From NCBI RefSeq assembly GCF_900109175.1, contig NZ_FNZE01000006.1, positions 124,001-188,000 of the forward strand: DNA of 64,000 nucleotides, written 5' to 3'. The notes under the pieces were generated by a model that had not been told where the DNA came from, made no database searches, and saw only the letters and a program-made list of their open reading frames with translations. A program made the position numbers and the translations under genes. Source of the stretch: Pseudomonas linyingensis. Its GTDB lineage: Bacteria > Pseudomonadota > Gammaproteobacteria > Pseudomonadales > Pseudomonadaceae. Shown piece by piece: positions 21,596 through 51,810 of this stretch; the first letter of the stretch is position 1, and each line of letters begins with the position of its first letter.

Positions 21596-21598
21596 TAT

Positions 21599-23374: not shown

Positions 23375-23418
23375 TGAAAACGGTTCCTTTCCTGCCATGG
23401 GCAGGGGGTGATTACCAG

Positions 23419-23444: not shown

Positions 23445-23469
23445 GGTGTCCTTGAGTCCGCCAGGCGGA

Positions 23470-24045: not shown

Positions 24046-24156
24046 GTTTAACGTCCTCGTTATTTGCAGCAGTTGACCTTGCCGTAATTCTGGCAAGGGG
24101 GGTGTTTGATGGTTGTTCAGCGCGCTGAGATGACTTATCGGCTTGGAGGTTTTTTT

Positions 24157-25662: not shown

Positions 25663-25680
25663 TTCAGGCACGCTACCGCC
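25663..25680 (-). promoter_or_regulatory. ops element 1 (RfaH recruitment site)
   Basis: Read on the minus strand the sequence is GGCGGTAGCGTGCCTGAA, whose first 13 bases equal the E. coli ops signal core within JUMPStart elements. It is preceded by TCCTGG, giving a CCTGGGGCGGTAGCGTGC context close to JUMPStart. It lies in the leader of operon 1, 43 bases before the MBL start and downstream of rfaH. The identical 18 bases occur in the leader of operon 2 at 51793-51810. Confidence 0.85.
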
Positions 25681-25727
25681 CCAGGATTTTCCGTCGGATC
25701 CTGAGAACGTGTTTTTCGCGTACACAG

Positions 25728-25764
25728 CTCAGCCCTGTGTGCGCTGGGCGGGCACAGGGCTGAG
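25728..25764. other. leader hairpin between rfaH and ops 1
   Basis: A perfect 12-bp inverted repeat (CTCAGCCCTGTG at 25728-25739, CACAGGGCTGAG at 25753-25764) with a 13-base loop. On the minus strand it is followed by GCTGTGTACGCG and AAAAA rather than a T run, so it is not a standard terminator. It lies after the rfaH stop and before the ops site, where it could act in the mRNA leader or end part of the rfaH transcripts. Confidence 0.5.
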
Positions 25765-25874
25765 GGCAGATGTTGTAAAGGGACTTGCTGGTGCGCCCGG
25801 TCCCTGGGTCTATATTCAAAATCTCTATTATTGTGCCGTGTGTGACAATCTTTTGTCTGTAAGCATTTTTCCCT

Positions 25875-26402
25875 TTATTCAGCCTTCTGGATGCTTGACA
25901 GCGGCACGCGGACTTTCTGTTCGCGGTGCAGGATGTTCATCAGCAATACCACCCTTTCGTTACCATCCATCGACAGGAATATGGCCTCCAGCTCGGCGAA
26001 AGGGCCGTTGTTGAGGCGTACCTTGTCGCCGGACTCGAGCAGCGGGCTGGGGGTGGGGGCGCTGCAGCGTTGCTGCAGGCGTTCGATCAGCTCTGGGCTG
26101 ACGGCCAGCGGCTGGTTGCCGAAGCCGACCACCCGGCTGACGCCGCGGGTGGAGCGCAGCGGGGCCCAGTTGTCCAGCTGGCTGAGCTGGATGAACAGGT
26201 AACCGGGGAACAGGGATTCCTCGACCAGCTGCTTTTGCCCCCGCAGCAGGCGTTCGCGACTGTGCCGCGGGCGGTAGCAGGTGTAGCCCTGGCGGAGCAG
26301 GTTTTCCTCGGCGCGCTCGTCCTGGCGCGGCTTGCACTGGACCAGATACCAGGCGTGCGGCTGTCGATTCTGTGGCTGTTCCGGCGTGAGGCTGCTGCTC
26401 AT
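25875..26402 (-). CDS. rfaH: transcription antitermination protein RfaH (NusG paralogue)
   Basis: Encodes 175 residues. The NGN domain runs from about 17 to 115 with WYLVQCKPRQDERAEENL, ESLFPGYLFIQL and STRGVSRVVGFG; the KOW-bearing C-terminal domain begins near 122 with SGDKVRLNNGPFAELEAIF and ends VVLLMNILHREQKVRVPL, which parallels the E. coli RfaH C-terminus rather than NusG. RfaH binds RNA polymerase paused at ops sites and carries it through long, poorly translated operons. Two ops sites are present in the window, one 195 bases beyond its own stop codon. It is divergent from wbpM. Confidence 0.93.
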   Translation of the reverse strand: MSSSLTPEQPQNRQPHAWYLVQCKPRQDERAEENLLRQGYTCYRPRHSRERLLRGQKQLVEESLFPGYLFIQLSQLDNWAPLRSTRGVSRVVGFGNQPLAVSPELIERLQQRCSAPTPSPLLESGDKVRLNNGPFAELEAIFLSMDGNERVVLLMNILHREQKVRVPLSSIQKAE

Positions 26403-26638
26403 GCGATCTTTCCGTCCTTGCCTTTGCCTTTCGGGTTGATGGCGGCGCTCTGATATGCGCCGTCTGGCTCAATCTGCATCATTTTCAAGGATTGTGCCAT
26501 CCAGTGCATCCTTTGTCGGTTTGTTGACGTATGTTGTTTTTGCTGGTTTTGGTTTTGCTGTGCGTGGCGGCAAAATGACTTCAGGTGGGCTACCGTTCCC
26601 TTGGAGGCTTCTCCTCTGTGTGGGCAAAGGTGGTTTTC

Positions 26639-28690: not shown

Positions 28691-28733
28691 TGGACATCTC
28701 TGAAAACCGAGGCTGACGGAGAGAGCGGTTGCG

Positions 28734-30311: not shown

Positions 30312-30312
30312 T

Positions 30313-31494: not shown

Positions 31495-31555
31495 ATGCAG
31501 CTTCCCGCTCGTTTCGTTTGAATCGGCATCCGGGTCAGCGTGGAGTCCGCAGACT

Positions 31556-33610
31556 TCAGCGCGTGAAGAGTTCCGGCACCGCTTGGGCCAGTCGCTCCTG
31601 CAGCCGGCCAGTCAGGGCGAGCACGTAGCGCGGGTTGAGGTGATGTCCGTCCCGGTACATGAGGAAGTCATGGGTGACGGTCAGGCACTGCTCAGCGGTG
31701 CACAGGAACTCGCTCATGTCCACTGTATGCAAGTTGCCGATTTCATCCAGGTACTCGAGCGCCGGGTCGCGCTCGGCCAGCGACTTGGCGCGCGGCTTGC
31801 TGCAGGTCAGCAGGTCATCCCGGTGGCGAGCCACACAGGTCGACGGGTCAAAGCCGAGCGAGGGGTTGTCGCGTATGCCGATCACCGGGATGCCCAGTTG
31901 CTCAAGGCGTTGCCACTGATCCAGGTAGGTCGGTGGCACGTACTCGAGGATCTTCGGGTTGGTGGTGCTGGTCGAGTTGGTGATCACCACCTGCGGGCGG
32001 AGGTCGGCGAGGGTTTCGATCAGGCGGCGGTTCCACTCGGCACACGAGGGATGGCCGCCCTCGGTGGCGCCAAACGGGCATTCCTTCTTGGTGATGTTGA
32101 GAACCCTCAAGCCGTTGGATTTGCCGATGCGGTCAAGGGCCGGTAGCCACTGGGTGGCATGCGAGCCGCCAACCAGCGCCACGGTGGTCGTGGCTTGGGT
32201 GTCGCCGTAGGCGCAGGAGACCACCTCGGGGCGGGTGATCTCCTGATGGCAGTTACCCTGATAGGAGGCTGGCAGGATCATCTTGGCGGTGATCAGGTGC
32301 GCTTCGGATAGCTGGCCTGTCCTGGCTTGCACCTGCGCTGGGGCGAAGTCCTCGGGTCCGATCAGCCGGGCGTTGCTGCCTTTCTCCTCGGCCACAACGT
32401 TGCGAATGTAGTAATTCCAGGTGGCGGCGCTGGCCAGTACCGGGCTGAGCAGCAGCAGGCCGATGAAATAGGGCACCCACACCCGACGCGAGGCGTATCG
32501 GTGGTTGCGGATCGGCTCCTCGACGAACCTGTGGGTCGCCATCGCCAGTACTATCGCCAGTGCAATGATAAGCAGGCCGTGGAGCAGGCCGAGGCGGCTG
32601 GTGCCCGTGTATTCCAGGGAAAAGGCCAGCAGCGGCCAGTGCCAGAGGTAGATGCCGAAGGAAATCTTGCCGAGGCCGGACAGGTGACGGCTGGCCAGCC
32701 AGCGGTTGGCGACGGACTGGACCGGGCCGCTGCCGGTGATGATCAGCGCGACGGCGGCGGCCACCGGGATCAGCGCGATGTAGCCGGGGAACTGGGCATC
32801 ATGGGGGGCCAGGAAGCCGAACAGCAGCAGGGTAGCCAGCCCGAGCAGGCCGAACAGGTGGCGTAGCCCGTCGGCGATGCGGATGCGCGGCAGTAGCAGG
32901 GCGAGCAGCACGCCAGCGAAGAACTCCCAGACCCGTGCTGCCGGGTTGAAGTAGGAGGATACCGGCTCGCGGGCGGTCGTCACGATCGAGTAGAGCAGGG
33001 AAGCCAGGATCACCAGTCCGACTGTCAGGAGTAGCGGCGTGCGCGAGGCCGGGCTTGTCTTCCGGGCGATCCAGAAAGCCAGCATCAGCACCGGCGGCAA
33101 CAGTGCATAAAACTGCACCTGGGTGGACAGCGCCCAGAATTGTTGGACCGGGCTGGGCGGAAGCTCGCGAGCCAGATAGTCGACCGAAGAGTGCATCAGG
33201 GCGATGTTCTCCAGGTTTAGCGCGCTGAACAGGATTTCCCGGATCAGCTGACTCCATAGCGGTTCGGGGACAATGAAGTAGCCGATGGCCAGCGTGGTCA
33301 GCAGTACCGTGCAGGCGCAAGGGGCAATGCGCTTGATCAGGTTGCCCCAGAAGATCAGCGGCCTGATCCGGTCGTGTTGTTGGATCTGGCGGATCAGCAC
33401 GCCGGCCATCAGGAAGCCGGAGATCACGAAGAACACATCCACGCCTCCGGACACCTTGTTGATCCAGATATGGTAAACGGCGATCAGAATCGCGCTGATC
33501 GCCCGGATGCCCTGGATGTCGTCGCGGTAGGTATTCTGCGTGGAGGCGCTGGCGCGCGCATCGCTGTCTCCGGTCCATTTCATCGTTGCGCTGGGTCTGC
33601 TCTTGAGCAT
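31556..33610 (-). CDS. AT3-SGNH acyltransferase (OafA-like)
   Basis: Encodes 684 residues. The N-terminal acyltransferase-3 domain (about 25-390, ten helices) starts YRDDIQGIRAISAILIAVYH with GGVDVFFVISGFLM; the C-terminal periplasmic SGNH domain has GGSHATQW with the nucleophile Ser at 483 and the DGHH catalytic pair at 654-657. Such two-domain proteins O-acetylate surface polysaccharides. The ATG at 33610 has AGAGG six bases upstream. It is the last gene of operon 2, with 64 bases or less of gap to the convergent DUF1501 gene. Confidence 0.9.
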   Translation of the reverse strand: MLKSRPSATMKWTGDSDARASASTQNTYRDDIQGIRAISAILIAVYHIWINKVSGGVDVFFVISGFLMAGVLIRQIQQHDRIRPLIFWGNLIKRIAPCACTVLLTTLAIGYFIVPEPLWSQLIREILFSALNLENIALMHSSVDYLARELPPSPVQQFWALSTQVQFYALLPPVLMLAFWIARKTSPASRTPLLLTVGLVILASLLYSIVTTAREPVSSYFNPAARVWEFFAGVLLALLLPRIRIADGLRHLFGLLGLATLLLFGFLAPHDAQFPGYIALIPVAAAVALIITGSGPVQSVANRWLASRHLSGLGKISFGIYLWHWPLLAFSLEYTGTSRLGLLHGLLIIALAIVLAMATHRFVEEPIRNHRYASRRVWVPYFIGLLLLSPVLASAATWNYYIRNVVAEEKGSNARLIGPEDFAPAQVQARTGQLSEAHLITAKMILPASYQGNCHQEITRPEVVSCAYGDTQATTTVALVGGSHATQWLPALDRIGKSNGLRVLNITKKECPFGATEGGHPSCAEWNRRLIETLADLRPQVVITNSTSTTNPKILEYVPPTYLDQWQRLEQLGIPVIGIRDNPSLGFDPSTCVARHRDDLLTCSKPRAKSLAERDPALEYLDEIGNLHTVDMSEFLCTAEQCLTVTHDFLMYRDGHHLNPRYVLALTGRLQERLAQAVPELFTR

Positions 33611-33682
33611 GGCTAACCTCTGGGTTGACTTTCGCAGGAGCGGCAGGAGTGCGCCAGACCGCCTACTCGGCGCACGATGCGG

Positions 33683-34858
33683 TCAGTAGGCGGCTTCGTC
33701 CATGACTGCGGTGAGCACCGCGCAGGTCTTGTCGATTTCCGCGTTGGTCAGTGTCGGGTGGACGAGGAACATCAGACTGGTCTCGCCCAGTTCGCGGGCC
33801 ACCGGCAGGCGTTCGGTCGGGCGCAGGTTGGTGTTGTCGAAGGCCTTTTCCAGGTAGACCTCGGAGCAGGAGCCGTAGAAGCATGGCACGCCGCGCGCAT
33901 TGATCTCGCCGAGGATGCGGTCGCGGTCCCAGCCGACGGCCAACTGCCCCGGTTCGACGAACAGGTAGCACTTGTAGGCCGCGTGGACGAGGTCGGCGGG
34001 AACGCTGGGGGTACGCAGGCCGCGCAGCTGACGGGCGCAGTTCCAGATGCGCTCGGCGTTGGCCAGGCGCCGTGCATGCCAGGCGTCGAGGCGGCGCAGC
34101 TGGATGCGGCCGATCACCGCCTGCACCTCCATCATCCGCCAGTTGGTGCCGAAGCGTTCGTGCAGCCAGCGAAAGCCCGGGGTGGAATGGGGCTGGTGCA
34201 CCGCCTCCCAACTCTTGCCGTGGTCCTTGAGCGACCACATGGTCGACCACAGCTCGCGGCTGTTGGTGGTGACCATGCCGCCTTCGCCGCCGGTGCTGAT
34301 GATCTTGTCCTGGCAGAACGACCAGGCGCCGACATGGCCGATCGTACCGACCGAGCGGCCCTTGTACTGGGCACCATGGGCCTGGGCGCAGTCCTCTATC
34401 ACCTTGAGGTCGTGCTCGGCGGCCAGCGTCATGATCGAGTCCATGTCGCACGGCCAACCGGCCAGGTGCACGCAGATCACTGCACGGGTGCGCGGTGTCA
34501 GCACGGCGCGGATGGTTTCCGCGGTAATGTTCTGCGATTCGCGGTCTACCTCGGCGAACACCGGTACCGCTCCGGCATTGACGATGCTGGATACCGAGGC
34601 GAGGAAGGTGCGGGGCGTCACCACCACCTCGTCGCCCGTGCCTATCCCCAGTCCCTTGAGCGCCACGTCCAGCGCTACGGTGCCGTTCTCCAGGGCGATG
34701 GCGTATTCGGCACCGGCCCATTCGGCAAATTCCTTCTCGAATTGGTGGCATTCCTCGCCGGTCCAGTAGTTGACCCTGTTGGACAGGATGACATCGCGTA
34801 CCGCATTTGCCTCTTCTTCCGTGAAGCATGGCCATGGTGAAAAGCTGGTATTCAACAT
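33683..34858 (-). CDS. DegT/DnrJ/EryC1-type sugar aminotransferase
   Basis: Encodes 391 residues of the PLP-dependent nucleotide-sugar aminotransferase family. The Schiff-base Lys is K185 in FCQDKIISTGGEGGM; other landmarks are ALENGTVALDVALKGLGIG near 56-73, TPRTFLAS and EDCAQAHGAQYKG. The ATG at 34858 has GGAG upstream; a TTG eight codons earlier is less likely. It may aminate the 4-keto sugar made by WbpM, and the next enzyme for that amine could be the formyltransferase encoded just upstream. Substrate position (C3 or C4) cannot be read from sequence. Confidence 0.9.
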   Translation of the reverse strand: MLNTSFSPWPCFTEEEANAVRDVILSNRVNYWTGEECHQFEKEFAEWAGAEYAIALENGTVALDVALKGLGIGTGDEVVVTPRTFLASVSSIVNAGAVPVFAEVDRESQNITAETIRAVLTPRTRAVICVHLAGWPCDMDSIMTLAAEHDLKVIEDCAQAHGAQYKGRSVGTIGHVGAWSFCQDKIISTGGEGGMVTTNSRELWSTMWSLKDHGKSWEAVHQPHSTPGFRWLHERFGTNWRMMEVQAVIGRIQLRRLDAWHARRLANAERIWNCARQLRGLRTPSVPADLVHAAYKCYLFVEPGQLAVGWDRDRILGEINARGVPCFYGSCSEVYLEKAFDNTNLRPTERLPVARELGETSLMFLVHPTLTNAEIDKTCAVLTAVMDEAAY

Positions 34859-35047
34859 GATGACCTGCTCCGCAATATTCAATTGAACGCTGTGCTGAGT
34901 CCTTGTTCGTGGTTTTTTTCGAATAATGATGCTGAAACCCTGATGGTGCTCCTCTCGGTTGGTTGCTTTGCCTATGGCGGCGAGTGCTTATGGAGGGAAA
35001 ATTGCTTCGCCAGACAAGGCGAGGGTGGGGCTGAGGTGGGGGACTGG

Positions 35048-35827
35048 TTATTTCGCCCCGCTCCTGACCCAGTTGCCGAGGTATTCGAGCAGCGTCGGAT
35101 GCGACCACAGCATGGAGGGAAGAACGCCTGGTTTGACCTGTATCTGGTTGTGCCGAATATCGTCGAGGGCTGCCTTGACGAGGGGGATTGCCTTGGCCAA
35201 CTGGTGAATGGGATAGGTGTTGAAGTTGTCGCGGCTTTCCGGGTGGATGGTGTCCTGGTAGAGCACTCCACCGGTATCTATGCCTGGGTCGATCAGGTGC
35301 ACGGTAACTCCGCAGTTTTCCCGATCGCCCCGGGCCAGTGCCCAGTAACCACCATGCACCCCGCGATAGCGAGGGGTGATGCCCATGTGGGTATTGATCA
35401 CTGGGCATGAGATGGCTGCCAGGATGCTGGCCGAGATGATGCGGGTGCCGTTGACGATCACCACGTCGGGCCTGGCCGCCTCCAGCAGTTCGATGGTTCT
35501 GGGATTATTGATGCTGTCGACCCTGCTGAGGACTTCGGCGGGAAAGGCTGCATCGCTGATTCCGTAATCGGCCATCAGCTGGTGGATGCGTTCGGTGGAG
35601 GCCCGACTGAGCAGCCTGTTGTAGGCCATGAACAGCAGTTGTCCGACTACCTTGGCGGCGCCCAGCTTTCTAATCCTGCCGCGCAGCAGTGCGAGCGCTG
35701 ATGGGCTGTCCTCGAGAATGATGCGCTCGATCCGCACGCCGGGGAGTTTTGCCAGGCTGTTGTAGAGGATTCGCGAGGAGCGTCCGTTGCCGCACAGCAT
35801 GGTGACCCGGACATGTGGGGTTTCCAT
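35048..35827 (-). CDS. formyltransferase-family protein
   Basis: Encodes 259 residues related to methionyl-tRNA/sugar N-formyltransferases. The catalytic triad landmarks are N-x-H in VINTHMGITPRYRG and the Asp in IDPGIDTGGVLYQD, with VIVNGTRIIS before them. Such enzymes transfer a formyl group from N10-formyltetrahydrofolate to a sugar amine. The ATG at 35827 shares one base with the deacetylase stop (TGATG) and has GGAG nine bases upstream, which decides this start over one eight codons earlier. The neighbouring aminotransferase suggests an N-formylated amino sugar. Confidence 0.85.
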   Translation of the reverse strand: METPHVRVTMLCGNGRSSRILYNSLAKLPGVRIERIILEDSPSALALLRGRIRKLGAAKVVGQLLFMAYNRLLSRASTERIHQLMADYGISDAAFPAEVLSRVDSINNPRTIELLEAARPDVVIVNGTRIISASILAAISCPVINTHMGITPRYRGVHGGYWALARGDRENCGVTVHLIDPGIDTGGVLYQDTIHPESRDNFNTYPIHQLAKAIPLVKAALDDIRHNQIQVKPGVLPSMLWSHPTLLEYLGNWVRSGAK

Positions 35828-36798: not shown

Positions 36799-36873
36799 GG
36801 CAGTCTCCCGGTCTTGCAGGCCCAGGCCTTGTAGATGCCGCTGTCAATCGCCTGCATGTCCGCCCTGGCGGGT

Positions 36874-39655: not shown

Positions 39656-39808
39656 GCGCGTTCAGACCGTTTGGGGGCCGAGGCATAGCCAAGCCGGTCC
39701 CAATGACTGAAATTCAAGTCACCGTGGCTTGTCTGGCGGACTCGAGTGATTTTTAGGGGGAAAAAAGATGCGATGAAGCTGCTGAGTACGGTGTCGATCT
39801 TGTTTGGC

Positions 39809-41158: not shown

Positions 41159-41168
41159 GATTCACCTG

Positions 41169-42335
41169 TTAGATCAGTGATTCTTTCCAGAAGTTGTACC
41201 TTATCTCGTCAAGGTTTTTTCTTTCGTAGATTGCTGCAGTTTCATAGGCGTTTCGTCCTGCCTTCAGGTATTCGTCTGGCTGGAGTTCGAGCAGTCTTTC
41301 CATTATGGCGCTCAGCCCGGTGTGCTCCATGTTCGCGAAGATGAACGACTCGGGTAGAAGTTCCGGAATCCCGCCCCTGTCACTACCGGCCGATGGCAGT
41401 CCCCGCGACATGGCTTCGATCAGCGAGCGGGGCAATCCTTCCGAGCGGCTCGGCTGGAGATAGAAAGTTTGCTGATCGAGCCATTCGAGAACCTCGGGCG
41501 ACGAATTTCTGGTGCCATCGAAGTAGACCTTTTCCGCTACTCCCAGGCTGCCTGCCAGATCCTCAAGGTGGGCGTGATCGCCGGATCCGAGTATGTGCAG
41601 CTCGCAGTCATGGCCCTTGCCGATCAGCAGGCTCAGGGCTCTTATGGCAATGTCGACGCCCTTGTAGTTGGTCACCATCGAGCCGATCAGGCCGAAGCTC
41701 TTCCTCTGCTTGTTGAGCTTTATTCGCAGGACTTCCTGAACGTCCGACCAGGGGGCAAGGGTTATATTCACGTTCGATGCCGAAGCGGACAGGCCGGTGC
41801 ATGGGTAGAGTGCCTGGAGCGTTCTTCGGGTGACGTATATGCAGGCTTGCGATCGGGCTATGGCCCGCCTGACTCTCAGGGAAAGCAGCGGCGCATACAG
41901 TCTTGCATAGAGCTTCTTGTGATGGGCCAGGGCGGTCAGTGGGTCGCCAACCAGTTCGATGGAAAACTTCTTGCCAAGCCTTCTGGCGATCCTGATGGCC
42001 AGCAGGCCGATTTCGCTGGGCAGCCTGACGATCAAATGGTCCGCCAGGCCTATCTCGCGCTCGAGTATTTCCCGGGCCAGGGGTCTGTTGGTCAGGACAT
42101 GTGTCGGCGAGGAGATGCTGGGCACCCTGACGAAGGCAACCCGATCACGCGAAGAAAGCACGCCGGCAGCCGACTCTTCGTCATGCATGCGCGCGGTGAC
42201 GATGAGTTCTTCGGCAAACTCGAGGTAGCGGCCCCAGTTCTCGGCCGGGAAGCCTCCCTGAGAGTAAACCTTGCCGTCGGCAGCTTTGGCGAATCCGCCG
42301 TCATAGGCAAAGACAACGCGCGATAGTTTTTTCAT
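41169..42335 (-). CDS. glycosyltransferase (GT4-like)
   Basis: Encodes 388 residues with GT-B features: N-terminal VVFAYDGGFAKAADGKVYSQGGF, a C-terminal domain starting SFGLIGSMVTNYKGVDIAIRAL, LHILGSGDH and the donor motif SRSEGLPRSLIEAMSRGLPSAGSDRGGIPE with its Glu pair. The ATG at 42335 overlaps the Wzy stop by four bases (ATGA); the open frame continues far upstream inside the Wzy gene but is not conserved. Donor unknown; UDP-GalNAcA made by WbpO/WbpP is plausible. Confidence 0.85.
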   Translation of the reverse strand: MKKLSRVVFAYDGGFAKAADGKVYSQGGFPAENWGRYLEFAEELIVTARMHDEESAAGVLSSRDRVAFVRVPSISSPTHVLTNRPLAREILEREIGLADHLIVRLPSEIGLLAIRIARRLGKKFSIELVGDPLTALAHHKKLYARLYAPLLSLRVRRAIARSQACIYVTRRTLQALYPCTGLSASASNVNITLAPWSDVQEVLRIKLNKQRKSFGLIGSMVTNYKGVDIAIRALSLLIGKGHDCELHILGSGDHAHLEDLAGSLGVAEKVYFDGTRNSSPEVLEWLDQQTFYLQPSRSEGLPRSLIEAMSRGLPSAGSDRGGIPELLPESFIFANMEHTGLSAIMERLLELQPDEYLKAGRNAYETAAIYERKNLDEIRYNFWKESLI

Positions 42336-43780
42336 GACGGAGTCATGCTTGTGATGGGCTTCGGTCTTATGGAAATCAGGAAGATCATCAGGAAGGCCAT
42401 GAAGCCGTTCTTCATGATGAAGAAGACCAGGTTGTCGGAGTCGGAAAGTATCAGCACAAGGCAGCCGTTGGCGATGAAGGGGATCAGCAGGGTTCGCGGA
42501 TCCTCGGCCTTGAGCCGCAGGCAGAAGCTGTCGATCTTGCCGATCAGCATGCCGGCGCCGATGAACAGCAGGATGGGCAGGGCCGGGCCGAAGTTGAGCA
42601 GCCCTTCGCCGTAGAGTCCGAACACGCGGCTGTTGCGTATTCGCCCGTAGGACAGTACCGGGTCGATGGTTCTGCCGTAGAAAAGCTCGGCCCCCGCCGT
42701 ATTCTTCGAATCCGGGAATGGGTTGTCCATCCATGGCATCACCTTGAACAGCGAGTTCAGGTAGGTGGCGCCCAGCTTGACGTTGTAGCTGTCCGAGTCG
42801 AAGTACTCGTGGAGGATGTAGGCGTGTACCGTGGATCTAGAGAAGTCTTCGAGGAGTATGCTTGCGATGGGGTTGCCATCGAATCTCCCAGAATCCTCGA
42901 CCGTGTACTCGCCGCTGAACGCTTCGACGCCGAAGCTCTTGTAGACCGCATAGCTGACCATGAAGGCCATCAGGAAGGCCGTGCCGATCAGATAGTGCCT
43001 GAGCTTGAGCTTGAAGTAGACCAGGTGGATGATCCCGGCCGCCCAGAATATGCCCCAGATGGTGTTGCTGCGGCTGCCGCGGAAGCCGCCGAAGAGCAGC
43101 TTGAGTAGGAAGAAGGCGATCAGCAGGCCATACACCAGCCATATTCTCTCGCGCACCTTCTCCCGGTCGGTGAAGAGCACGAACGAGATGAGCAGCAGGA
43201 TTGGAAAGGCTTCGGCCAGCATGAATATCGAGCCCAGCCCCTTGAAGGACTCTTTCTGTTCGGTCCACTCGACGAGGTAGCCATATACGCCGCCGAAGCT
43301 GACGAAGATGTATGCCTGGACCAGCAGGGTGAAGGTGAGGAAGGCTAGCGAGACGACGGGGAGCATGCTCCGGTTGACCTCCCAGGCCGGCAGTGGCTCG
43401 AGATTGTTGTCGGAGCCCAGCAGGATGCCGGTCAGCAGGGCGATGGCGCAGGCGGTATAGATCCAGGACGTATGGATCAGCCAGGGCTCCCACTCGATGT
43501 TCTTCGGCGCGTAGAGGATGAACTTCTCCCACACGATGCTGGCCAGCGGCGAGATGGCCAGGCCCCACAGCAGGACCAGCGCTACCAGCGGCGCGGGATG
43601 GAAGATGGAACCGCCCTGGGCCACGCTGCGGAAGATAATGAAGAACAGGATCGTGCTGGTAATGGCGATCTGCGGGAAGAAGTTGACCGCCTGCAGCCCG
43701 CCGTACAGCAGGCAGGCGGTGGTCGTCGCCAGTCCGGCAAAAATCGCCTGGTTGATGGGGTTCGTTTTCAATTTCGGCAT
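42332..43780 (-). CDS. Wzy-like O-antigen/capsule polymerase
   Basis: Encodes 482 residues with about twelve membrane helices and a long polar loop near 280-390 containing FGGFRGSRSNTIW and SRVFGLYGEGLLNFGP. RGSRS and the Arg-rich loop followed by a late membrane block are typical of the oligosaccharide repeat-unit polymerase family. It should polymerise the repeat unit of operon 2 in the periplasm. It lies between flippase and glycosyltransferase genes, 28 bases after the flippase stop. Confidence 0.83.
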   Translation of the reverse strand: MPKLKTNPINQAIFAGLATTTACLLYGGLQAVNFFPQIAITSTILFFIIFRSVAQGGSIFHPAPLVALVLLWGLAISPLASIVWEKFILYAPKNIEWEPWLIHTSWIYTACAIALLTGILLGSDNNLEPLPAWEVNRSMLPVVSLAFLTFTLLVQAYIFVSFGGVYGYLVEWTEQKESFKGLGSIFMLAEAFPILLLISFVLFTDREKVRERIWLVYGLLIAFFLLKLLFGGFRGSRSNTIWGIFWAAGIIHLVYFKLKLRHYLIGTAFLMAFMVSYAVYKSFGVEAFSGEYTVEDSGRFDGNPIASILLEDFSRSTVHAYILHEYFDSDSYNVKLGATYLNSLFKVMPWMDNPFPDSKNTAGAELFYGRTIDPVLSYGRIRNSRVFGLYGEGLLNFGPALPILLFIGAGMLIGKIDSFCLRLKAEDPRTLLIPFIANGCLVLILSDSDNLVFFIMKNGFMAFLMIFLISIRPKPITSMTPS

Positions 43781-43808
43781 CCCTGTGCGAGGTTCGAGTC
43801 AGGGCGTT

Positions 43809-44990
43809 TCAGGCCGGTGAGTCCAGCGGCGCGGAAGGCTTGCGCTGCTGCCGGCTGGCGTACAGTGCATTGAAGATGAACAGGGTCAGCGATGATGCCA
43901 GGTAGGCTGCTGCGGCGCCGGTCTGGGCGAACTGCATGATCAGCAGCGGGCTCGCGATCAGCGCCGCGAGGGTCGACAGCAGGGCGGCCACGAGGATCTG
44001 CTGGAACTGCCGATTGGCCACCAGGACCGCATTCGACAGGGTGGACATGAAGTGCAGCCCGCCGGCGATACCGATCATGGCCAGCACGTGATAGGGGTAC
44101 TCGATGCGCGTCTTGTAGATGAAGTCGATCAGCGGGTTGGCAAGCAGCATCATGAAGGCCAGGTAGCCGCTCGAGTAGGCGATGAGGAACCACCAGACCC
44201 GTTTCGGCGCGCCCTGCATGGTGATCCGCGGGATGATCGCCTGGCAGAGCGAGGTGATCGGCAGGGTCGCGAAGGCGATGAAGTAGGTCAGCATCACGAA
44301 CTCGGCGAGTGCCTGTTCGTCGAGGATGTGGTTGATGGATATCCGCGGGATGCTCGAGTTCAGGCTGACGACGAACGAGCCGAGCGCCAGCGGTGTGCCG
44401 CTCCTGATGATGTTCAGCAGCCCCGTGTCGCGCGGATCCTCCACTTCCTCCTGGCGCCTGTCGTAGAGAAAGTAGACGATCAGCGTCGCCGCCGGGTAGG
44501 CGAAGAGCATGGCCCGGTCGCGGATGCCCAGCGCCAGGAGCGCGAGGAACAGGGCGGCGAACAGCGCCAGCTTGGCGATCTTGGAGATGCCATAGCGGTG
44601 CAGCCCGCCCGTTCTCACCCAGGTGCCGTAGGAGAGTTCCGAGAGGTTGTCCGCCAGCTTGATCAGGAAGACCAGACTGGCTATCGCGGCATCGCCGTCG
44701 GTGGCCAGCAGGATGACCAGGTAGTAGGCGCTCAGCAGCAGCAGGCCCGCATGCTGGGCTCGCCTGTAGCTACTGAGGGAGTGCTCCCGCTCCCGGTCGG
44801 AGGCGACCGAGTTCCTGATCCCGAAGGTGGTCAGGATGGCTGCCGGGGTGAACAGCGCCAGGTAATAGGCGTACTCGCCGGCGGCCTCGATGGAGATCAG
44901 CCGGGACAGCAGCACCAGCACCGACCACTGCGCCAGGGCATAGGCGATCGATCCGCAGATGTGGAAGAGTGCTTCCCTCTTCAGACTCAT
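43809..44990 (-). CDS. Wzx-like polysaccharide flippase
   Basis: Encodes 393 residues with twelve predicted membrane helices; the N-terminus [26 protein letters not shown] and [18 protein letters not shown] match the lipid-linked oligosaccharide flippase pattern of the MOP superfamily. The ATG at 44990 overlaps the wbpP stop by four bases (ATGA); the longer open frame upstream lies inside wbpP. It would export the repeat unit made by operon 2. Confidence 0.85.
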
Positions 44991-46042
44991 GCCGTGTGCC
45001 TTTTCAGCGGCTGGGTGGCGCGGAGGAAGTTCACGTACCAAGGCATTGCCCTTTCGATGCCGGCCCGAATGTCGAACTGGGGCGCGTAGGCGAGCAGCTT
45101 GCGGGCCTTGTCTATGTCCGCCAGCGAGTGCCGGACGTCGCCAGGGCGAAAATCCCGGTAGATGGGAGTGCTGGAATAGGTGATGCCGCTGTTCCTCAGG
45201 CTGTCCCTCAGGGCGGCAAACAGCTGGTTGAGTGTCGTCCTCTCGCCAACGGCGATGTTGTATACCTGGTTGCGGGCGGATTCGTCCGTGGTCGTGGCGG
45301 CCAGCAGGTTGGCCTGCACCGTGTTCTCGATGAAGCAGAAGTCGCGACTGCTCTCGCCATCGCCATTGATGAAGACATCCTCGCCATTGATCATTGCCGC
45401 GGTCCACCTCGGGATCACTGCGGCATAGGCGCCGTTCGGATCCTGGCGTTTTCCGAACACGTTGAAATAGCGCAGTCCGATGCTGGCGAAGCCGTAGGTC
45501 CGGGCGAATATCTCGGCATACAGCTCGTTGACGTACTTGGTGACGGCATAGGGCGACAAGGGTCTGCCGATCACATCCTCCACCTTGGGCAGTCCGGGGT
45601 GGTCTCCGTAGGTGGAGCTGCTGGCGGCATAGACGAAACTTTTCACCCGACAGTCGCGTGCGGCAATCAGCATGTTGAGATGGCCGCCGATATTGGTGGC
45701 GTTGGTCGCGGCAGGATCATCTATCGAGCGGGGCACCGAGCCGAGAGCCGCCTGGTGCAGCACGTGATCAACACCTTCGCAGGCCATCCGGCAGTCTGAC
45801 GGGTTGCGGATGTCACCTGCGATGAAGCGGAAGCGCGCCCATTGCTCGGCGGTTACCCCGAGCCGTACTTCGTCGAGATTGCGCTGATGGCCGGTAGCGA
45901 AGTTGTCGAGTCCCACCACCCGCTGGTCGAGCCCGAGCAGGGCTTCCAGCAGATTGGAGCCTATGAAGCCGGCTACCCCGGTGATAAGCCAGGTTCGTGG
46001 GGCCGTGGTGAGCTTGTGCTGTAGGGTTGGGTAGCTGGTCAT
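44987..46042 (-). CDS. wbpP: UDP-N-acetylglucosamine 4-epimerase WbpP
   Basis: Encodes 351 residues of the extended SDR family. It follows WbpP of P. aeruginosa and TviC closely: [52 protein letters not shown], the catalytic [10 protein letters not shown] with [11 protein letters not shown] (YxxxK), and [17 protein letters not shown]. It interconverts UDP-GlcNAc and UDP-GalNAc (and the uronic acids). The ATG at 46042 begins [10 protein letters not shown]. It is 34 bases after wbpO. Confidence 0.95.
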
Positions 46043-46076
46043 ATTGGCTGCTCCGTGGCATCCAGGCGCAGGGCGG

Positions 46077-47354
<1,278 letters not shown>

Positions 47355-47471
47355 GGTGGTCGTCCAGATAGGGGCCTGTGGTGGGTCTGGGACCATCCTT
47401 GGTTCGCGTGTCTTGGTGACGCGTCGTCCGTGCTCTCTCGGTTTTCGCCTGGACAGCTGCGCGTGTGCGGT

Positions 47472-48197
47472 TCAGGAGAAATGTTCGTGGGCGATCTTCC
47501 ACGGGGTATCGATAACCAGGCGTTCGGCCTGGATATCGCCGACGATGCGTGCAGCGTGCTCCATGCCCTCGGCTAGCGCGGGAGGGCGATGCTGGATGTT
47601 GTGGGCATCGCTGGCGAGGATGGTGACCAGCCCGTATTCGAGCAGGGCATGGGCGATGAGCCGCGCGGGCTCGCCGAAGTGGCCGGCTACTGCGCCGGCG
47701 GTCACCTGCAGCAGGCAGCCCTGTTCGAGGAACGGCTTCAGCTTTCGCGGACAGGCCATGACACCCTTGTTGCGCTCTGGGTGGGCGATCATCGGCATGA
47801 CGTCATGCTGCAGCAACCACTCGGTCAGGCGCTCGGCGCCGAAAGGCACCTCGCTGTGGGGCAGCTCGAGCAGCATCACCCGCTTGCCGTGCCATGTTCC
47901 CAGGAAGGGCAGGGTGCCCTGCTCGATGCCGAGCATCAGTTCCGTGCCGTAGCGCACTTCGGCGGCGGCGGCGATCTGAAGCGGGATGCCGGCCTCCTGC
48001 AGGCCGGTCACCAGCAGCTCCCGAGCGGCTGCGATGCTGGCGATGGTGTTGTCGTAGCGGCCGGGATGTATGTGCGGGGTGCAGACCAGGTGGGTTATGC
48101 CCTGCTCGACGGCCATGCGTGCCAGTTGCAACGCCGTTTCGAGGTCGGGTGCCCCGTCGTCGATGCCGGGCAGCAGGTGGTTGTGCAGGTCGATCAT
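47472..48197 (-). CDS. PHP-type tyrosine-protein phosphatase (CpsB/YwqE-like), copy 2
   Basis: Encodes 241 residues, the same length as copy 1, with identical metal motifs: DLHNHLLPGIDDG, CTPHIHPGRYDN, IAHPERNKG and SDAHN. Differences are concentrated near residues 50-80. It should dephosphorylate Wzc copy 2. It starts 37 bases after the wzc stop with no inserted genes, in contrast to module 1. Confidence 0.93.
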   Translation of the reverse strand: MIDLHNHLLPGIDDGAPDLETALQLARMAVEQGITHLVCTPHIHPGRYDNTIASIAAARELLVTGLQEAGIPLQIAAAAEVRYGTELMLGIEQGTLPFLGTWHGKRVMLLELPHSEVPFGAERLTEWLLQHDVMPMIAHPERNKGVMACPRKLKPFLEQGCLLQVTAGAVAGHFGEPARLIAHALLEYGLVTILASDAHNIQHRPPALAEGMEHAARIVGDIQAERLVIDTPWKIAHEHFS

Positions 48198-48234
48198 GGG
48201 ACTGATCCTGGATTTTCAGGGCCCGAACACCGGG

Positions 48235-50499
48235 CTAGGCTTTTGATCCTTGGGTGGTCTGTGCATCCGTTTTCTGCGGGTTGGTGTAACCGTAGTAGTC
48301 GTAGTAGCCGCCGTAGTGATAGCCATGCTTCTGTGCTTTCTTGATGTCCACCTGGTTGAGAACCACACCGGTCACTGGAGAGTTGCTCTGCAGCAACTGG
48401 CCGACGCCTCTCCTGGCCAGCGGTACTGAAGTCGACTCGGACTTGATCACGTAGATCTGCGCGTCGGCATGGATGGCCAGAATTGTGGCGTCGCTGACGG
48501 CCTGAATCGGTGGCGAGTCGATGATTACCCGGTCGTAGCTGTCCTTCAGCTGCTCGATAAGCTTGGTGAAGCGCTCCGAGGACAACAGCTCCAACGGGTT
48601 CGGTGGCACGGCGCCGGCGCACAGCATGTCGATGCCTTCGATGGTCTTGATGCATTCATCGACCTTGGCGGTGCCGGCGATCAGGTTGGCCAGACCTGGG
48701 GTGCCGACTGGAAACTTGAAATTCTTGGCCAGGGTCGGGCGGCGCAGGTCGGCGTCGACCAGCAGCACCTTCTCCATCTGGCCGAAGGCGTAGGCCAGGT
48801 TGGCGGCCACTGTGCTCTTGCCTTCGCCGGGGATGGAGGAAGTGACCACCAGAATGCGGTGAGGGTCGCTCATCCCGGACAGCACCAGGCTGGTGCGGAT
48901 GGTGCGGATAGACTCGCTGAAGCTCTTGTCCTCGTTGCTGCTGAACAGGCTGGCGATCTGGCTACGATGCTTGTTCTTGACCAGCGGCAGGATGCCCAGT
49001 ACCGGCAGGTTGAGCTTGGCTTCGACTTCCTCGGCACCCTTGAAAGTGTTGTTGAGCATCTCCAGCAGCAGGCTGAGGCCGATACCGGCCATCAGGGCGA
49101 GGATGCCGGCCATGGAAATTATCAGGCTCTTCTGCGGCTTGATGGGCTGGGTAGGCACGACGGACTGGTCAACCACTCGGGCGTTGGCGGTTTCCAGGTC
49201 GGAGGTGGCTGCCGTTTCCTTCAGGCGAGTCATGAAGGTGTCGTACAGGGCGCGGTTGGCCTCCACTTCGCGCTGCAATTCGCGGATCTGGAACTCCTTG
49301 CGGGAGATCTTCTGGATCTGTGCCTTGTTGGCATCTACCGAGGCCTGCAGCGAGTTCTCGTTGGCTACCGCCAGCTGGTAGTTGCGCTCAATGCCGGCGA
49401 CGATCTGTTCGACCTGGCCGCGCAGACTGGCCGAGGCTGCTTTGAGGTCTGAGCGCGCGGCCTCAAGTGCCGGATGGCGGTCACCGTAGCGTTTGGAGAG
49501 CTCATCGACCTTGGCGCGGGCCCTCGCTTCATCGGCCTTGAACTGTTGGATGAGCGGGTGGCCGAGGACCGCCGGGATGGTGGCAAGCTTTGCCCAGCCA
49601 CCACGGCGCATGGACTCCACCTGACGGTATTGACTCTGCGCTTCGGCGCGCTGGCGGCGGGCGTCAATCATGCGGTCGCTGGTGGCCGACAGTTCTGCGG
49701 CGTTGATCGTCGAGACGCCGCCAATGTCCACCAGGTTCTCCTTCTCACGGAATGCCTGCAGCTTGTCTTCGGCCTCCTTCAGCTTGGTGCGCAGCTCCAG
49801 CATGCGGGTGTTCATCCAGTTGGTAGCGGTCATGGACATCTCCATGGTCGCGTCCAGCTGGCCCTCGATGAAGCCGTTGGCCATGGCGTTGGCAGCTTTG
49901 GCTGCCATGCGCGGGTCGGCCATTTCGACCTGCAACTGGACCAGCTGGCTCTTGCCGAGTGGTGCAATGCTGACGCGCTTCATGAAGGTCTTGGTGACCT
50001 CGTCGAAAATCTTCGCTTCGGTCGGGTCGACACCTTCTTCCAGGTCTTCCGGCAGGATGACTGGAATGGCCTCGCCGATGCTGAAGCTGGCCAGCAGGCC
50101 GCCAATGTCGATTAGTGGTTCTGGCTGCTGGCGTGGGTCGAATTCGGGATGTGTGGTCAGGTTCAATTTCTTGACCACGCGCTCAGCGAGGGCGCGAGAC
50201 TTGAGCAGCTCGAACTGGGTCAGCAGATATTCGTTACCCATACCTTCGGGGTCGTAGACTTGTTCGATGGAGACAACGTTGGCTGATTTGTGCTCGATCA
50301 GCAGGGTGCTGGTGGCGCGGTAGGTTGGGGTTATGACGAAGGTCCCCAACGCAGTCACCATCATGACGATGAGCACCAGTGCGAGAATGCTCCACTTGCG
50401 CCGCCAGAGGATCTGCCATATCTGCAGTATGTCTGGAGCGTCATTTGCCAGACGCTGGGCAATCCAGTTGCGTTCTCTGGCACTGACAGTCATGTCCAT
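48235..50499 (-). CDS. wzc: Wzc-type polysaccharide co-polymerase / tyrosine autokinase, copy 2
   Basis: Encodes 754 residues with the same order as copy 1: first helix near 37-58, coiled periplasmic part, second helix near 460, kinase domain with SSIPGEGKST, LLVDADLRRP and VIIDSPP. The tail is GYHYGGYYDYYGY (seven tyrosines) followed by a longer Thr/Gln-rich end. Long blocks are identical to copy 1, for example from FELLKSRALAERVV to NLTTHPEFDPR, while the N-terminus and the first helix differ. It is 25 bases after the OPX gene and probably pairs with it. Confidence 0.95.
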   Translation of the reverse strand: MDMTVSARERNWIAQRLANDAPDILQIWQILWRRKWSILALVLIVMMVTALGTFVITPTYRATSTLLIEHKSANVVSIEQVYDPEGMGNEYLLTQFELLKSRALAERVVKKLNLTTHPEFDPRQQPEPLIDIGGLLASFSIGEAIPVILPEDLEEGVDPTEAKIFDEVTKTFMKRVSIAPLGKSQLVQLQVEMADPRMAAKAANAMANGFIEGQLDATMEMSMTATNWMNTRMLELRTKLKEAEDKLQAFREKENLVDIGGVSTINAAELSATSDRMIDARRQRAEAQSQYRQVESMRRGGWAKLATIPAVLGHPLIQQFKADEARARAKVDELSKRYGDRHPALEAARSDLKAASASLRGQVEQIVAGIERNYQLAVANENSLQASVDANKAQIQKISRKEFQIRELQREVEANRALYDTFMTRLKETAATSDLETANARVVDQSVVPTQPIKPQKSLIISMAGILALMAGIGLSLLLEMLNNTFKGAEEVEAKLNLPVLGILPLVKNKHRSQIASLFSSNEDKSFSESIRTIRTSLVLSGMSDPHRILVVTSSIPGEGKSTVAANLAYAFGQMEKVLLVDADLRRPTLAKNFKFPVGTPGLANLIAGTAKVDECIKTIEGIDMLCAGAVPPNPLELLSSERFTKLIEQLKDSYDRVIIDSPPIQAVSDATILAIHADAQIYVIKSESTSVPLARRGVGQLLQSNSPVTGVVLNQVDIKKAQKHGYHYGGYYDYYGYTNPQKTDAQTTQGSKA

Positions 50500-50524
50500 T
50501 TCTGGGAGCCCCTGCTCAAAAGAA

Positions 50525-51067
50525 TCAGAAGAAACCCTGGTCGATGGTGATGGTGTCGCCCGGCATCACCAAGGTGTCGAGTGTGGCGGGTTCCGGCCTG
50601 CGCTCGGGGTCTTGGTCGCGGATGATGGTGATGCGGTTTTCCGACGCGCGTTCGGTCAGGCCGCCTGCCAGCGCCACGGCACGGCGAAGGGTCAGACCTG
50701 GTTGGAAGGCATAGCCACCAGGGGTTTTCACTTCGCCGCTGATGAAGAACTCGCGGTATTTGAGAATGCTGACCGACACCCGGGGATCGATCAGATAGCT
50801 ACCCTTGAGACGCTCCGTGAGGGTGCGCTCGATCTCGGAAGCCATCTTGCCTCCAGCCCGCACGTCGCCGAGGAATGGGTAGGAGAAGATGCCCGCATCG
50901 TTGAGGCGGACCTCTGCGAAGCTCAGGTCTGGCTCGCCGAAGACACTGATGCTGATGACATCACCCGAGGCCAACTTGTAGGTGGAGTCGGTTTCGGCCA
51001 GCACGCCGCTGCTGAGCGGAAGGAGCAGGCTCAGGCACAGAGTCAGAATGTAATGGCGGAGAATCAT
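50525..51067 (-). CDS. short Wza-type polysaccharide export (OPX) protein, copy 2
   Basis: Encodes 180 residues with signal peptide (LTLCLSLLLPLSSGVLA) and poly_export plus SLBB parts, starting YKLASGDVISISVFGE, with ISGEVKTPGGYAFQPGLTLRRAVALAGG and the terminal GDTITIDQGFF shared with copy 1. As in copy 1 there is no lipobox and no pore-forming C-terminal helix. The ATG at 51067 opens the signal peptide; 37 codons of open frame upstream are not conserved. No barrel gene accompanies it. Confidence 0.88.
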   Translation of the reverse strand: MILRHYILTLCLSLLLPLSSGVLAETDSTYKLASGDVISISVFGEPDLSFAEVRLNDAGIFSYPFLGDVRAGGKMASEIERTLTERLKGSYLIDPRVSVSILKYREFFISGEVKTPGGYAFQPGLTLRRAVALAGGLTERASENRITIIRDQDPERRPEPATLDTLVMPGDTITIDQGFF

Positions 51068-51307
51068 GAGGCACGGTCTCCCTGTTGAAGCCAGGTCGTG
51101 AACAGAGCTGTCGTCAGCTCCCGAAAACTTGCTGCATCGACTGCTGGAGTTACTGGCCGGAATTGCTGGTGATCTCAATACGATGTGGTCTGAAGCAGGT
51201 GGAGCTGATCTTGTCGATATCGTCCTCGCTTTGCATTCGTCTGTGGGAGGGGGGGCTGCCAGCTTTACTGGCCGCCCCTGTGGCCATCAACTCTACGGTT
51301 GTCCACG

Positions 51308-51592
51308 TCAGCTTCGGCTTGCTTTGGGCATTGCCGGAGTCGCCGGGGTGGCCGGAGTCGCGGGAGTCGCGGGAGTGCCTTGTGAGCCCGGACTCGCCGG
51401 TGTAGCCGGATTGGCTGGCGTGGCTGGTGTTGCCGGCGTGCCTTGGCTCGTTTGGGTATTGGCCTTCTCGTTGTTGGCGGCGAGGAGGAAACTGCCCGCT
51501 GCCGTCAGGTCGCTCGGCGCTGCAGGGGCCGCAAGCGCCAAGGGTGCGGTCAGCGCCAGTGCCAGGGATAGAGTGTTCAGAGTCTTGCGCAT
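51308..51592 (-). CDS. small secreted Pro/Ala/Thr repeat protein of unknown function
   Basis: Encodes 94 residues: signal peptide MRKTLNTLSLALALTAPLALA, a short unique part (SDLTAAGSFLLAANNEK), then PAT/PAN triplet repeats broken by GSQG, ending MPKASRS. The signal peptide and the GAGGA ribosome site match those of the Ala-rich protein in module 1, but the repeat type differs. It is the first gene after ops 2 and lies 240 bases before the OPX gene; that gap has no clear gene. Proposed as a functional counterpart of the module 1 protein; function unknown. Confidence 0.65.
   Translation of the reverse strand: MRKTLNTLSLALALTAPLALAAPAAPSDLTAAGSFLLAANNEKANTQTSQGTPATPATPANPATPASPGSQGTPATPATPATPATPAMPKASRS
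51333..51452. repeat. 9-bp in-frame repeats in the small secreted protein gene
   Basis: Degenerate tandem units of the form GCCGGAGTC / GCGGGAGTC / GCTGGCGTG (plus strand) encode repeating P-A-T or P-A-N triplets on the minus strand. Unit changes keep the frame, so length variation between strains is likely. Confidence 0.7.
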
Positions 51593-51792
51593 ATCGAATG
51601 TCCTCGCGAGCAAACCAGACGGTCATCTGAAGGCTAGATCATCAATTCTCATGCGCTGCTGGCGCGCTAGATAACACGCGACAAGCGGTATGTGCGCGGG
51701 CCGTGATGTATGTCGGCAGCGGGCGATGGTCATGACTCGAATGAGGCGCTGCACTTGGTCGGTTACCCGGTGGTTGCTATTTGACAACGTCA

Positions 51793-51810
51793 TTCAGGCA
51801 CGCTACCGCC
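51793..51810 (-). promoter_or_regulatory. ops element 2 (RfaH recruitment site)
   Basis: The minus-strand sequence GGCGGTAGCGTGCCTGAA is identical over 18 bases to ops 1 at 25663-25680 and contains the E. coli ops core. The upstream flank is also similar (ATCTTGT versus ATCCTGG). It lies 200 bases before the first gene of operon 2, in the correct orientation for leftward transcription. Confidence 0.85.

What the first reader, a model, noticed from the sequence alone, without database searches (positions are those of the whole stretch)
25663..51810. Two identical ops elements with rfaH encoded between the operons
The 18 bases GGCGGTAGCGTGCCTGAA occur on the minus strand at 25663-25680 and 51793-51810, each in the leader of a 20-plus kb leftward polysaccharide operon. 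They contain the ops core known to recruit RfaH. The rfaH gene (25875-26402) is in the same locus, directly upstream of ops 1. In E. coli rfaH is unlinked from its targets; here regulator and both targets would move together. If rfaH transcripts reach ops 1, the protein would extend its own transcription unit.
Basis: partly seen in the sequence, partly recalled or inferred. Interest (0 to 1): 0.85.

Follow-up and report, generated by a model that had tools for sequence, protein, structure and literature searches.

The report
RfaH gene linked to its leaders
A pseudomonad keeps the gene for a transcription helper right in front of one of the DNA signals that call the helper in, and the RNA just before each signal may fold into a conserved knot, which if real would add an unexpected step to a textbook system.

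Summary
Both ops copies are exact, each heads a long leftward polysaccharide run, and a true rfaH ends 194 nt before ops 1 on the same strand. One further ops with the same leader exists in the genome, on another contig, heading an O-antigen-type cluster. So RfaH here has linked and unlinked targets; 'everything moves together' is only partly right.

rfaH followed by ops recurs in Pseudomonadaceae: 44 of 74 exact sites in 148 genomes, and no exact site in the 54 genomes without an RfaH match; yet only 44 of 118 rfaH genes have such a linked site. No terminator-like site separates rfaH from ops 1, which fits a shared transcript and feed-forward, not autoactivation.

The less expected part is the leader RNA: about 30 nt with two helices in pseudoknot order, helix B ending one nucleotide before ops. 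Both helices exceed all shuffles in covariation score, but not in every measure. Helix B matches the JUMPstart stem; two full-text searches gave no description of helix A. Its function is inferred, not shown. RfaH, ops and JUMPstart are known: a new variant.

The parts
25875..26402 (-). rfaH, 175 aa, first gene of the leftward unit, divergent from a WbpM-like dehydratase gene (26585-28690 +)
   Evidence: TIGR01955 178 bits over cut-off 144.5; nearest solved relatives are E. coli RfaH, E 4e-26
25728..25764 (-). perfect 12-bp inverted repeat between rfaH and leader 1, not followed by a T run
   Evidence: read; folds strongly; no terminator-like site found
25706..25709 (-). leader 1 helix A, 5' arm CGTT
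   Evidence: pairs with 25692-25695; helix A covariation
25699..25703 (-). leader 1 helix B, 5' arm CAGGA
   Evidence: pairs with 25682-25686; helix B covariation
25692..25695 (-). leader 1 helix A, 3' arm GACG
25682..25686 (-). leader 1 helix B, 3' arm TCCTG, one nucleotide before ops
25669..25680 (-). ops 1, GGCGGTAGCGTG
2243..25620 (-). operon 1: beta-CASP metallo-hydrolase, outer-membrane barrel, Wza-like export, Wzc-like kinase, CpsB-like, sugar transferases, pyruvyl transferase, rml-type genes, phosphoglucomutase
   Evidence: Pfam matches; operon inferred from strand and spacing
51836..51839 (-). leader 2 helix A, 5' arm CGCA (three pairs only)
51829..51833 (-). leader 2 helix B, 5' arm CAAGA
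51822..51825 (-). leader 2 helix A, 3' arm AGCG
51812..51816 (-). leader 2 helix B, 3' arm TCTTG
51799..51810 (-). ops 2, GGCGGTAGCGTG
31556..51626 (-). operon 2: Wza-like export, Wzc-like kinase, CpsB-like, UDP-sugar dehydrogenase, epimerase, flippase-like, glycosyl- and sugar transferases, deacetylase, acyltransferase
   Evidence: Pfam matches; operon inferred from strand and spacing

Best explanation
This is an RfaH/ops antitermination system with two special features. (1) rfaH is the first gene of the transcription unit whose remainder it controls. Transcription that starts before rfaH runs through it, reaches the leader and pauses at ops 1; RfaH made from that or an earlier transcript loads there and lets RNA polymerase complete the ~23-kb operon. 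The same protein works in trans at ops 2 (26 kb away) and at an O-antigen-type ops on another contig. Because ops lies after rfaH, rfaH is made without RfaH and the circuit is feed-forward. (2) Each ops is preceded by a conserved RNA element of two short helices in H-type pseudoknot order. Helix A (4 bp) can form first. Helix B (5 bp) can close only when its 3' arm leaves the polymerase, which is when the enzyme stands at ops. I propose that the knot forms at the RNA exit, steadies the pause and limits backtracking, giving scarce RfaH time to bind the ops DNA hairpin. Shown here: sequences, positions, genome-wide specificity, linkage, covariation. Inferred: the shared transcript, a knot rather than two alternative hairpins, and its effect on pausing.
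For: Three sites in the genome, each before polysaccharide genes. In 148 Pseudomonadaceae genomes, exact TGGGGCGGTAGCGTG occurs in 52 of 94 genomes with an RfaH match (E<=1e-25) and in 0 of 54 without (Fisher 3e-14); 44 of 74 sites lie 97-910 bp downstream of an RfaH match on the same strand. With the leader model, 51 of 91 sites at E<=1e-3 do so, median 130 bp; chance expectation is about 2e-4 per site. Three genomes (G086, G135, G140) each hold two rfaH-ops modules. Terminator-like sites in 1 of 30 distinct rfaH-ops intervals. On 38 gapless leaders, helix A has 89.5% and helix B 98.9% of cells paired, and each exceeds all 500 shuffles in percentage paired, cells changed on both sides and covariation score. 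Leaders within one genome differ by kept two-sided changes in helix A in 8 of 19 pairs (6 of 13 genomes) and in helix B in 10 of 19 (8 of 13). RfaH residues aligned to E. coli E48 and R138, and to K10, R16, Q24, R73, are the same in 18 of 18 rows.
Against: Linkage is not general: 44 of 118 rfaH genes have an exact linked site (50 of 118 with the model), 30 of 74 exact sites are not next to rfaH, and 42 of 94 RfaH genomes lack the exact 15-mer. In the genus, G001 has no linked site and G007 has it 7 kb away (2 of 8). Covariation: two measures that the tool calls safer against relatedness are weak for helix A (pairs with two-sided change 87/500 shuffles, further pair types 213/500), and pair types are not exceeded for the whole structure (293/500) or helix B (450/500). 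In one search the helix A 3' arm was chosen as the best-pairing one, which favours pairing, and several genomes are close relatives. Helix A is weak alone (-0.4 to -2.1 kcal/mol). In E. coli the RfaH cycle is reported to depend on ops and RfaH sequence only, and the ops pause is distinct from hairpin pauses (abstract and passages of PMC11001881); RfaH itself weakens hairpin-stabilised pauses (passages). No promoter was recognised before rfaH either, so co-transcription is unproven.
Confidence: 0.6

Rival explanations
1. Plain enterobacterial-type RfaH regulation in trans: rfaH has its own promoter and end, ops 1 has its own promoter, and their closeness is only genomic clustering of polysaccharide genes.
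For: E. coli RfaH acts in trans and is monocistronic. The third ops and ops 2 must be served in trans. G001 keeps rfaH with only an unlinked ops. Most rfaH genes (74 of 118) lack an exact linked ops. A strong hairpin sits between rfaH and ops 1.
Against: Same strand, ops downstream, 97-910 bp in 44 of 74 sites. In 19 of 30 distinct intervals only 47-84 nt lie between rfaH and the leader (the fetched set favours short gaps). Terminator-like in 1 of 30 and promoter-like in 1 of 30.
Confidence: 0.25
2. The two helices are alternatives, not a pseudoknot: helix A folds first, then gives way to helix B as polymerase reaches ops, so the leader is a small timing switch.
For: Both helices show covariation, and order of emergence favours A first; neither excludes exchange.
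Against: The arms do not overlap, and loop lengths 2, 3-4 and 5 nt allow both at once. A switch usually uses overlapping arms (general knowledge).
Confidence: 0.25
3. RfaH here is a cis-acting, non-autoinhibited (beta-domain) type that loads as it is made and needs ops little; ops and leader mainly pause polymerase or recruit ribosomes.
For: The best AlphaFold2 model has a NusG-like beta C-terminal domain (mean pLDDT 75). A preprint links such predictions with rfaH lying next to long operons and with loss of a few ops-binding residues (PMC13015549, passages); here 6 of 13 positions tested around the recalled ops-contact sites differ from E. coli in most rows (R11, H20, T67, T68, N70, A71).
Against: Alignment of only 20 rows, no E. 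coli control, three of five models at pLDDT 60-65. The residues of the autoinhibition salt bridge (E48, R138) are kept in 18 of 18 rows. The exact 15-mer is confined to genomes with an RfaH match, and unlinked ops copies exist.
Confidence: 0.2

Closest known systems
E. coli RfaH with ops
   Same: Family-level match, identical 12-nt ops, long polysaccharide operons, action in trans at distant sites
   Different: rfaH sits directly before an ops here; H20 is N and the HTTT stretch is NWAP in the window protein
JUMPstart leader RNA (Rfam RF01707)
   Same: Stem ending one nucleotide before ops, in the same register; 9 of 12 enterobacterial or Aeromonas leaders read by eye also allow a CAGT/GCTG helix in the same order
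   Different: Scores 20-25 bits against a gathering score of 35; loop sequence differs; the Rfam model as printed has helix B only
Regulators encoded in their own operons: UpxY (Bacteroides), TaA (Myxococcus), RfaH cluster CL7 (Shewanella); also LoaP (Bacillus)
   Same: A NusG paralogue encoded in or beside a long operon (LoaP placement recalled)
   Different: Scores below UpxY and LoaP cut-offs; uses canonical ops and also distant targets
Class I hairpin pauses such as the his pause
   Same: RNA structure about 12 nt before the paused RNA end (geometry; his spacing recalled)
   Different: Two helices; the pause is at ops, reported as biochemically distinct

Membership tests
RfaH (TIGR01955) | Score above the curated cut-off | tested here: met
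   178.1 bits against 144.5
RfaH (TIGR01955) | Residues aligned to the E48-R138 interdomain pair | tested here: met
   E and R in 18 of 18 rows; 18 of the 20 rows of A1 were used, the two most distant left out
RfaH (TIGR01955) | Residues aligned to E. coli ops-contact sites (roles recalled) | tested here: inconclusive
   K10, R16, Q24, T72, R73, G74 same in 18 of 18 and R23 in 17 of 18; R11, T67, T68, N70, A71 changed in 18 of 18, H20 is N in 14 of 18 and H in 4
RfaH (TIGR01955) | Autoinhibited helical C-terminal domain that switches fold | tested here: inconclusive
   Best AlphaFold2 model has a beta domain; shallow alignment, no control; a second job was not accepted
ops element | GGCGGTAGCGTG in the untranslated leader of a long operon | tested here: met
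   3 of 3 genomic sites with the leader; untranslated status inferred from ORF positions
JUMPstart RNA (RF01707) | Score above the Rfam gathering score | tested here: not met
   No hit in the window at gathering; in 11 loci searched at E<=10, matches of 20.0-25.1 bits in 7, gathering score 35, some of these using little of helix B
JUMPstart RNA (RF01707) | Stem one nucleotide before ops | tested here: met
   Helix B register as in the Rfam consensus and in E. coli rfb
UpxY / LoaP | Score above curated cut-offs | tested here: not met
   73.6 of 100 and 43.9 of 125 bits
H-type pseudoknot | Two interleaved helices supported by covariation, formed together | tested here: inconclusive
   Interleaved order and covariation score in both helices, but weaker on safer measures; simultaneous formation not testable here

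The most novel reading that the evidence does not exclude
The ops leader, in pseudomonads and in the enterobacterial JUMPstart alike, is an RNA pseudoknot that closes at the exit of the polymerase exactly at the ops pause and licenses RfaH loading; and the rfaH-ops cassette of Pseudomonadaceae preserves the linked stage from which free-acting RfaH evolved, with cis and trans targets served by one protein.
Probability: 0.3. Interest if true: 0.82.

Novelty: new variant of a known kind. Interest (0 to 1): 0.6.

Why it matters
RfaH is the model fold-switching protein, and its origin is debated as a step from action beside its own gene to action at a distance through ops. A 2026 preprint says in its introduction that neither extant unswitched RfaH nor its in-cis regulation had been shown, then reports reporter activity and gene-neighbourhood data for such proteins (PMC13015549, passages). 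Some Pseudomonadaceae offer natural systems where one RfaH faces a linked ops and unlinked ops copies. A conserved knot before ops would add an RNA layer to a recruitment step now described in terms of DNA and protein, and it can be tested with simple arm swaps.

Tried and rejected
Autoactivation of rfaH: rejected, because ops lies downstream of rfaH.

Chance: rejected for the three sites. The C27 one-mismatch site was considered and set aside as chance-like.

A single canonical JUMPstart: tested with Rfam and not met.

Class-wide search for ops (229 genomes, 228 besides the window's): 3 exact GGGGCGGTAGCGTG sites in other genomes. Two lie inside long ORFs (one UvrA-like by eye); the third was not examined for genes. 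None shows the leader, so this gave no comparison outside the family. RfaH itself matched in 49 of these 229 genomes, the window's own included.

Exact sites without the leader (L090, L092, L096, L151) look like another, unexplained element. The ORFs after two of them showed no polysaccharide family (L147 none, L148 restriction-like). They stay in the counts, where all four count as full helix B by chance pairing. L042 and L068 also hold an exact ops core without the leader; both are among the 77 leaders.

MAFFT alignment A2 (53 leaders picked by hand from 77) split the 5' arm of helix B, so it was replaced by the gapless length class A3: 38 distinct of 43 leaders, out of 77. That choice uses helix B register, so it favours helix B but not helix A.

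Sites newly found by the model, L183-L193: helix B 5 of 5 in 10 of 11; helix A 4 of 4 in register in 5 of 11 (L183-L187, three of them near-identical; L184 by my reading). Two further fetched sites, L201 and L202, have 3 of 4 in helix A. Weak sites L194-L200: full helix B in 1 of 7, full helix A in 0 of 7.
Full report
WHAT IS THERE. The 18-mer is present exactly twice. The core GGCGGTAGCGTG without mismatch also occurs only at these two places in the window. rfaH (25875-26402, minus) passes the RfaH equivalog cut-off, and no other place in the genome does. The window is part of contig C18 of a 4.7-Mb genome. Its RfaH is 97% identical to that of a record titled Pseudomonas sagittaria, which NCBI now places in Geopseudomonas. 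Both ops copies precede long leftward runs of genes for polysaccharide export, kinase, glycosyl transfer and sugar-nucleotide synthesis.

THE WHOLE GENOME. A scan for GGCGGTAGCGTG gives three sites. The third lies between a wzz-like gene and a run of flippase, glycosyltransferase and sugar-nucleotide genes, downstream of a kdo-transferase gene. A like setting recurs in the genus: wzz before the site in G003 and G004, kdo-transferase before it in G001 and G002. A covariance model of the leader gives the same three sites, of which only the third was in its training set, and then nothing better than E 0.245. RfaH therefore probably serves two linked operons and one distant one.

THE MODULE IN RELATIVES. 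All 8 genomes of the genus that are held have RfaH. In 6 of 8, an ops lies 207-244 bp after the RfaH match on the same strand; in 1 it is 7.1 kb away, and in 1 (G001) there is only a distant one. A second ops 25-31 kb upstream occurs in 5 other genomes. Among 22 rfaH-related loci of named genomes, 13 have an exact ops 94-351 bp downstream, 2 have one further away (one of these, L068, without the leader) and 7 have none within the stretch held. In 148 Pseudomonadaceae genomes, 94 have an RfaH match at E<=1e-25. The exact 15-mer occurs in 52 of these and in none of the other 54. Of 74 sites, 44 lie 97-910 bp downstream of an RfaH match, which is 44 of 118 rfaH genes in 41 genomes. The leader model gives 91 sites at E<=1e-3, 51 of them next to rfaH, and one weak site (E 4.8e-4) in a genome without an RfaH match. 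Twenty rfaH loci were fetched from 17 of the 42 RfaH genomes without the 15-mer: 8 of 20 hold an exact GGCGGTAGCGTG downstream of rfaH (7 within about 215 nt, measured from an approximate gene end), so the 15-mer undercounts. Three genomes carry two modules each, and Pseudomonas sp. CC6-YY-74 has two rfaH genes, each with an ops 105 bp downstream. The longest ORFs after 8 sites with the 15-mer match a flippase-type protein, a SIS/GATase protein, a GNVR protein, a mannose-1-P guanylyltransferase, an outer-membrane barrel, a UDP-sugar dehydrogenase, a UDP-GlcNAc epimerase and a phosphotyrosine phosphatase; those after two sites without the leader do not match such families.

IS THERE READ-THROUGH? 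No terminator-like site lies between rfaH and ops 1. Of 30 distinct rfaH-ops intervals, 1 has a terminator-like and 1 a promoter-like site, and in 19 only 47-84 nt separate rfaH from the leader (the loci fetched favour short gaps). This favours a shared transcript. It is not proof: the simple scan recognised no promoter before rfaH either.

THE LEADER RNA. The three leaders share CGTT/CGCA/TGTC - CT - CAGGA/CAAGA - 3-4 nt - GACG/AGCG - 5 nt - TCCTG/TCTTG - one nt - ops. Over 77 distinct leaders held, 69 have a full 5-pair helix B, against a mean of 43.6 and a maximum of 51 in 200 shuffles of the arm. In these 69, helix A forms 248 of 276 pairs, against a shuffled mean of 231 and maximum of 239 in 1000 trials; it is complete in 45 of 69, shuffled mean 31 and maximum 39. 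On the gapless set of 38, percentage paired, cells with two-sided change and covariation score exceed all 500 shuffles for each helix, and sliding partners by 1-3 columns lowers pairing to 14-62%. Against this: the number of pairs with two-sided change reaches the observed value in 87 of 500 shuffles for helix A and 11 of 500 for helix B (2 of 500 for both together), and the number of pair types is not exceeded (213, 450 and 293 of 500). The tool warns that relatedness alone can beat the shuffles in score. Within single genomes, where leaders are paralogues, helix B types CAGGA/TCCTG, CAAGA/TCTTG, CAGGG/CCCTG and CAAGG/CCTTG and helix A types CGTT/GACG, CGCA/AGCG, AGTC/GACT and TGTC/GACA replace each other by two-sided changes: helix A in 6 of 13 genomes, helix B in 8 of 13, genomes chosen because several leaders were held. 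The order A5'-B5'-A3'-B3' makes an H-type pseudoknot possible, with loops of 2, 3-4 and 5 nt.

GEOMETRY. RNA polymerase pauses at U11 of ops with a 10- to 11-bp hybrid (passages of PMC11001881). Helix B then ends 12 nt from the RNA end, just outside the hybrid. The same spacing holds in E. coli rfb and in the Rfam JUMPstart model. Of 12 enterobacterial and Aeromonas leaders read by eye, 9 allow CAGT/GCTG in the helix A position and 3 only partly; these nine hardly vary, so they are weak evidence. The Rfam consensus reads CAGC and GCUG at these places (my reading).

LITERATURE. Two searches pairing 'pseudoknot' with 'JUMPstart' (5 papers) and with 'RfaH' (6 papers) listed no paper whose title or shown abstract describes a knot at ops. 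Of those papers only Weinberg 2010 was checked on the point (passages): it reports a conserved stem-loop for JUMPstart. Its additional files, and papers outside the library such as Marolda and Valvano 1998, were not seen. Linkage of rfaH to envelope genes is known: PMC7593976 (section 11 read), Azotobacter PMC4465626 (passages), P. stutzeri EPS273-M PMC5532660 (passages). PMC13015549 (preprint; section 8 and passages) finds 17 of 212 'metamorphic', 8 of 12 mixed and 7 of 10 'monomorphic' RfaH next to a long operon.

FOLD. AlphaFold2 with 20 rows gives, in its best model, a beta C-terminal domain (mean pLDDT 75, pTM 0.55; the other four models have mean pLDDT 75, 65, 62 and 60, and their folds were not shown). 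That would put this RfaH with the unswitched type. Residues aligned to E48, R138, F51 and L142 are kept in 18 of 18 rows; of 13 positions tested around the recalled ops-contact sites, 7 are kept and 6 (R11, H20, T67, T68, N70, A71) differ in most or all rows. The results point both ways. With a shallow alignment and no E. coli control, I leave it open.

ODDS. On rechecking the calls I lowered the main explanation from 0.62 to 0.60 (weaker covariation measures stated above) and raised the unswitched-RfaH rival from 0.15 to 0.20 (6 of 13 positions changed).

VERDICT.

Noticed in passing
window 24157-25620 (-): The first gene after ops 1 encodes a beta-CASP metallo-hydrolase of the RNA-processing type (Pfam Beta-Casp and RMMBL), and a similar gene start follows ops in several genus relatives. 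An RNase-like protein heading a polysaccharide operon is unexplained.
   Followed up: partly
window 18744-19262 and 18436-18747 (-): A nucleotidyltransferase substrate-binding (HEPN-like) protein (PF08780) sits inside operon 1 next to a small ORF that may be its MNT partner, looking like a toxin-antitoxin pair between Wzc-like and CpsB-like genes.
   Followed up: no
L055, L056, L058: Two or three ops leaders in tandem within 1.5-8 kb downstream of one rfaH in related Pseudomonas records.
   Followed up: no
L149, L151 and the leaders L090, L092: Sites with exact TGGGGCGGTAGCGTG but no leader; L149 and L151 share flanking sequence (GGACAGCCT before, AAGACGC and CAAGCGAATACG after), as if part of a different repeated element.
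   Followed up: partly
L003 1600-2300: Stretches that by eye resemble insertion-sequence ends lie between the third ops and the flippase gene; a similar stretch is at the start of contig C27.
   Followed up: no
window 23470-24096 and 51150-51626 (-): Both operons carry near their start a small low-complexity protein with a similar secretion-type start (MRKTL).
   Followed up: no
L185-L188, L192, L193: Leaders with full helix B but altered ops ends (GGCGGTAGCGTA, GGCGGTAGCGTT, GGCGGTAGCATT), natural ops variants.
   Followed up: no
window 55949-56045 (+): Bacterial small SRP RNA gene (Rfam RF00169).
   Followed up: no
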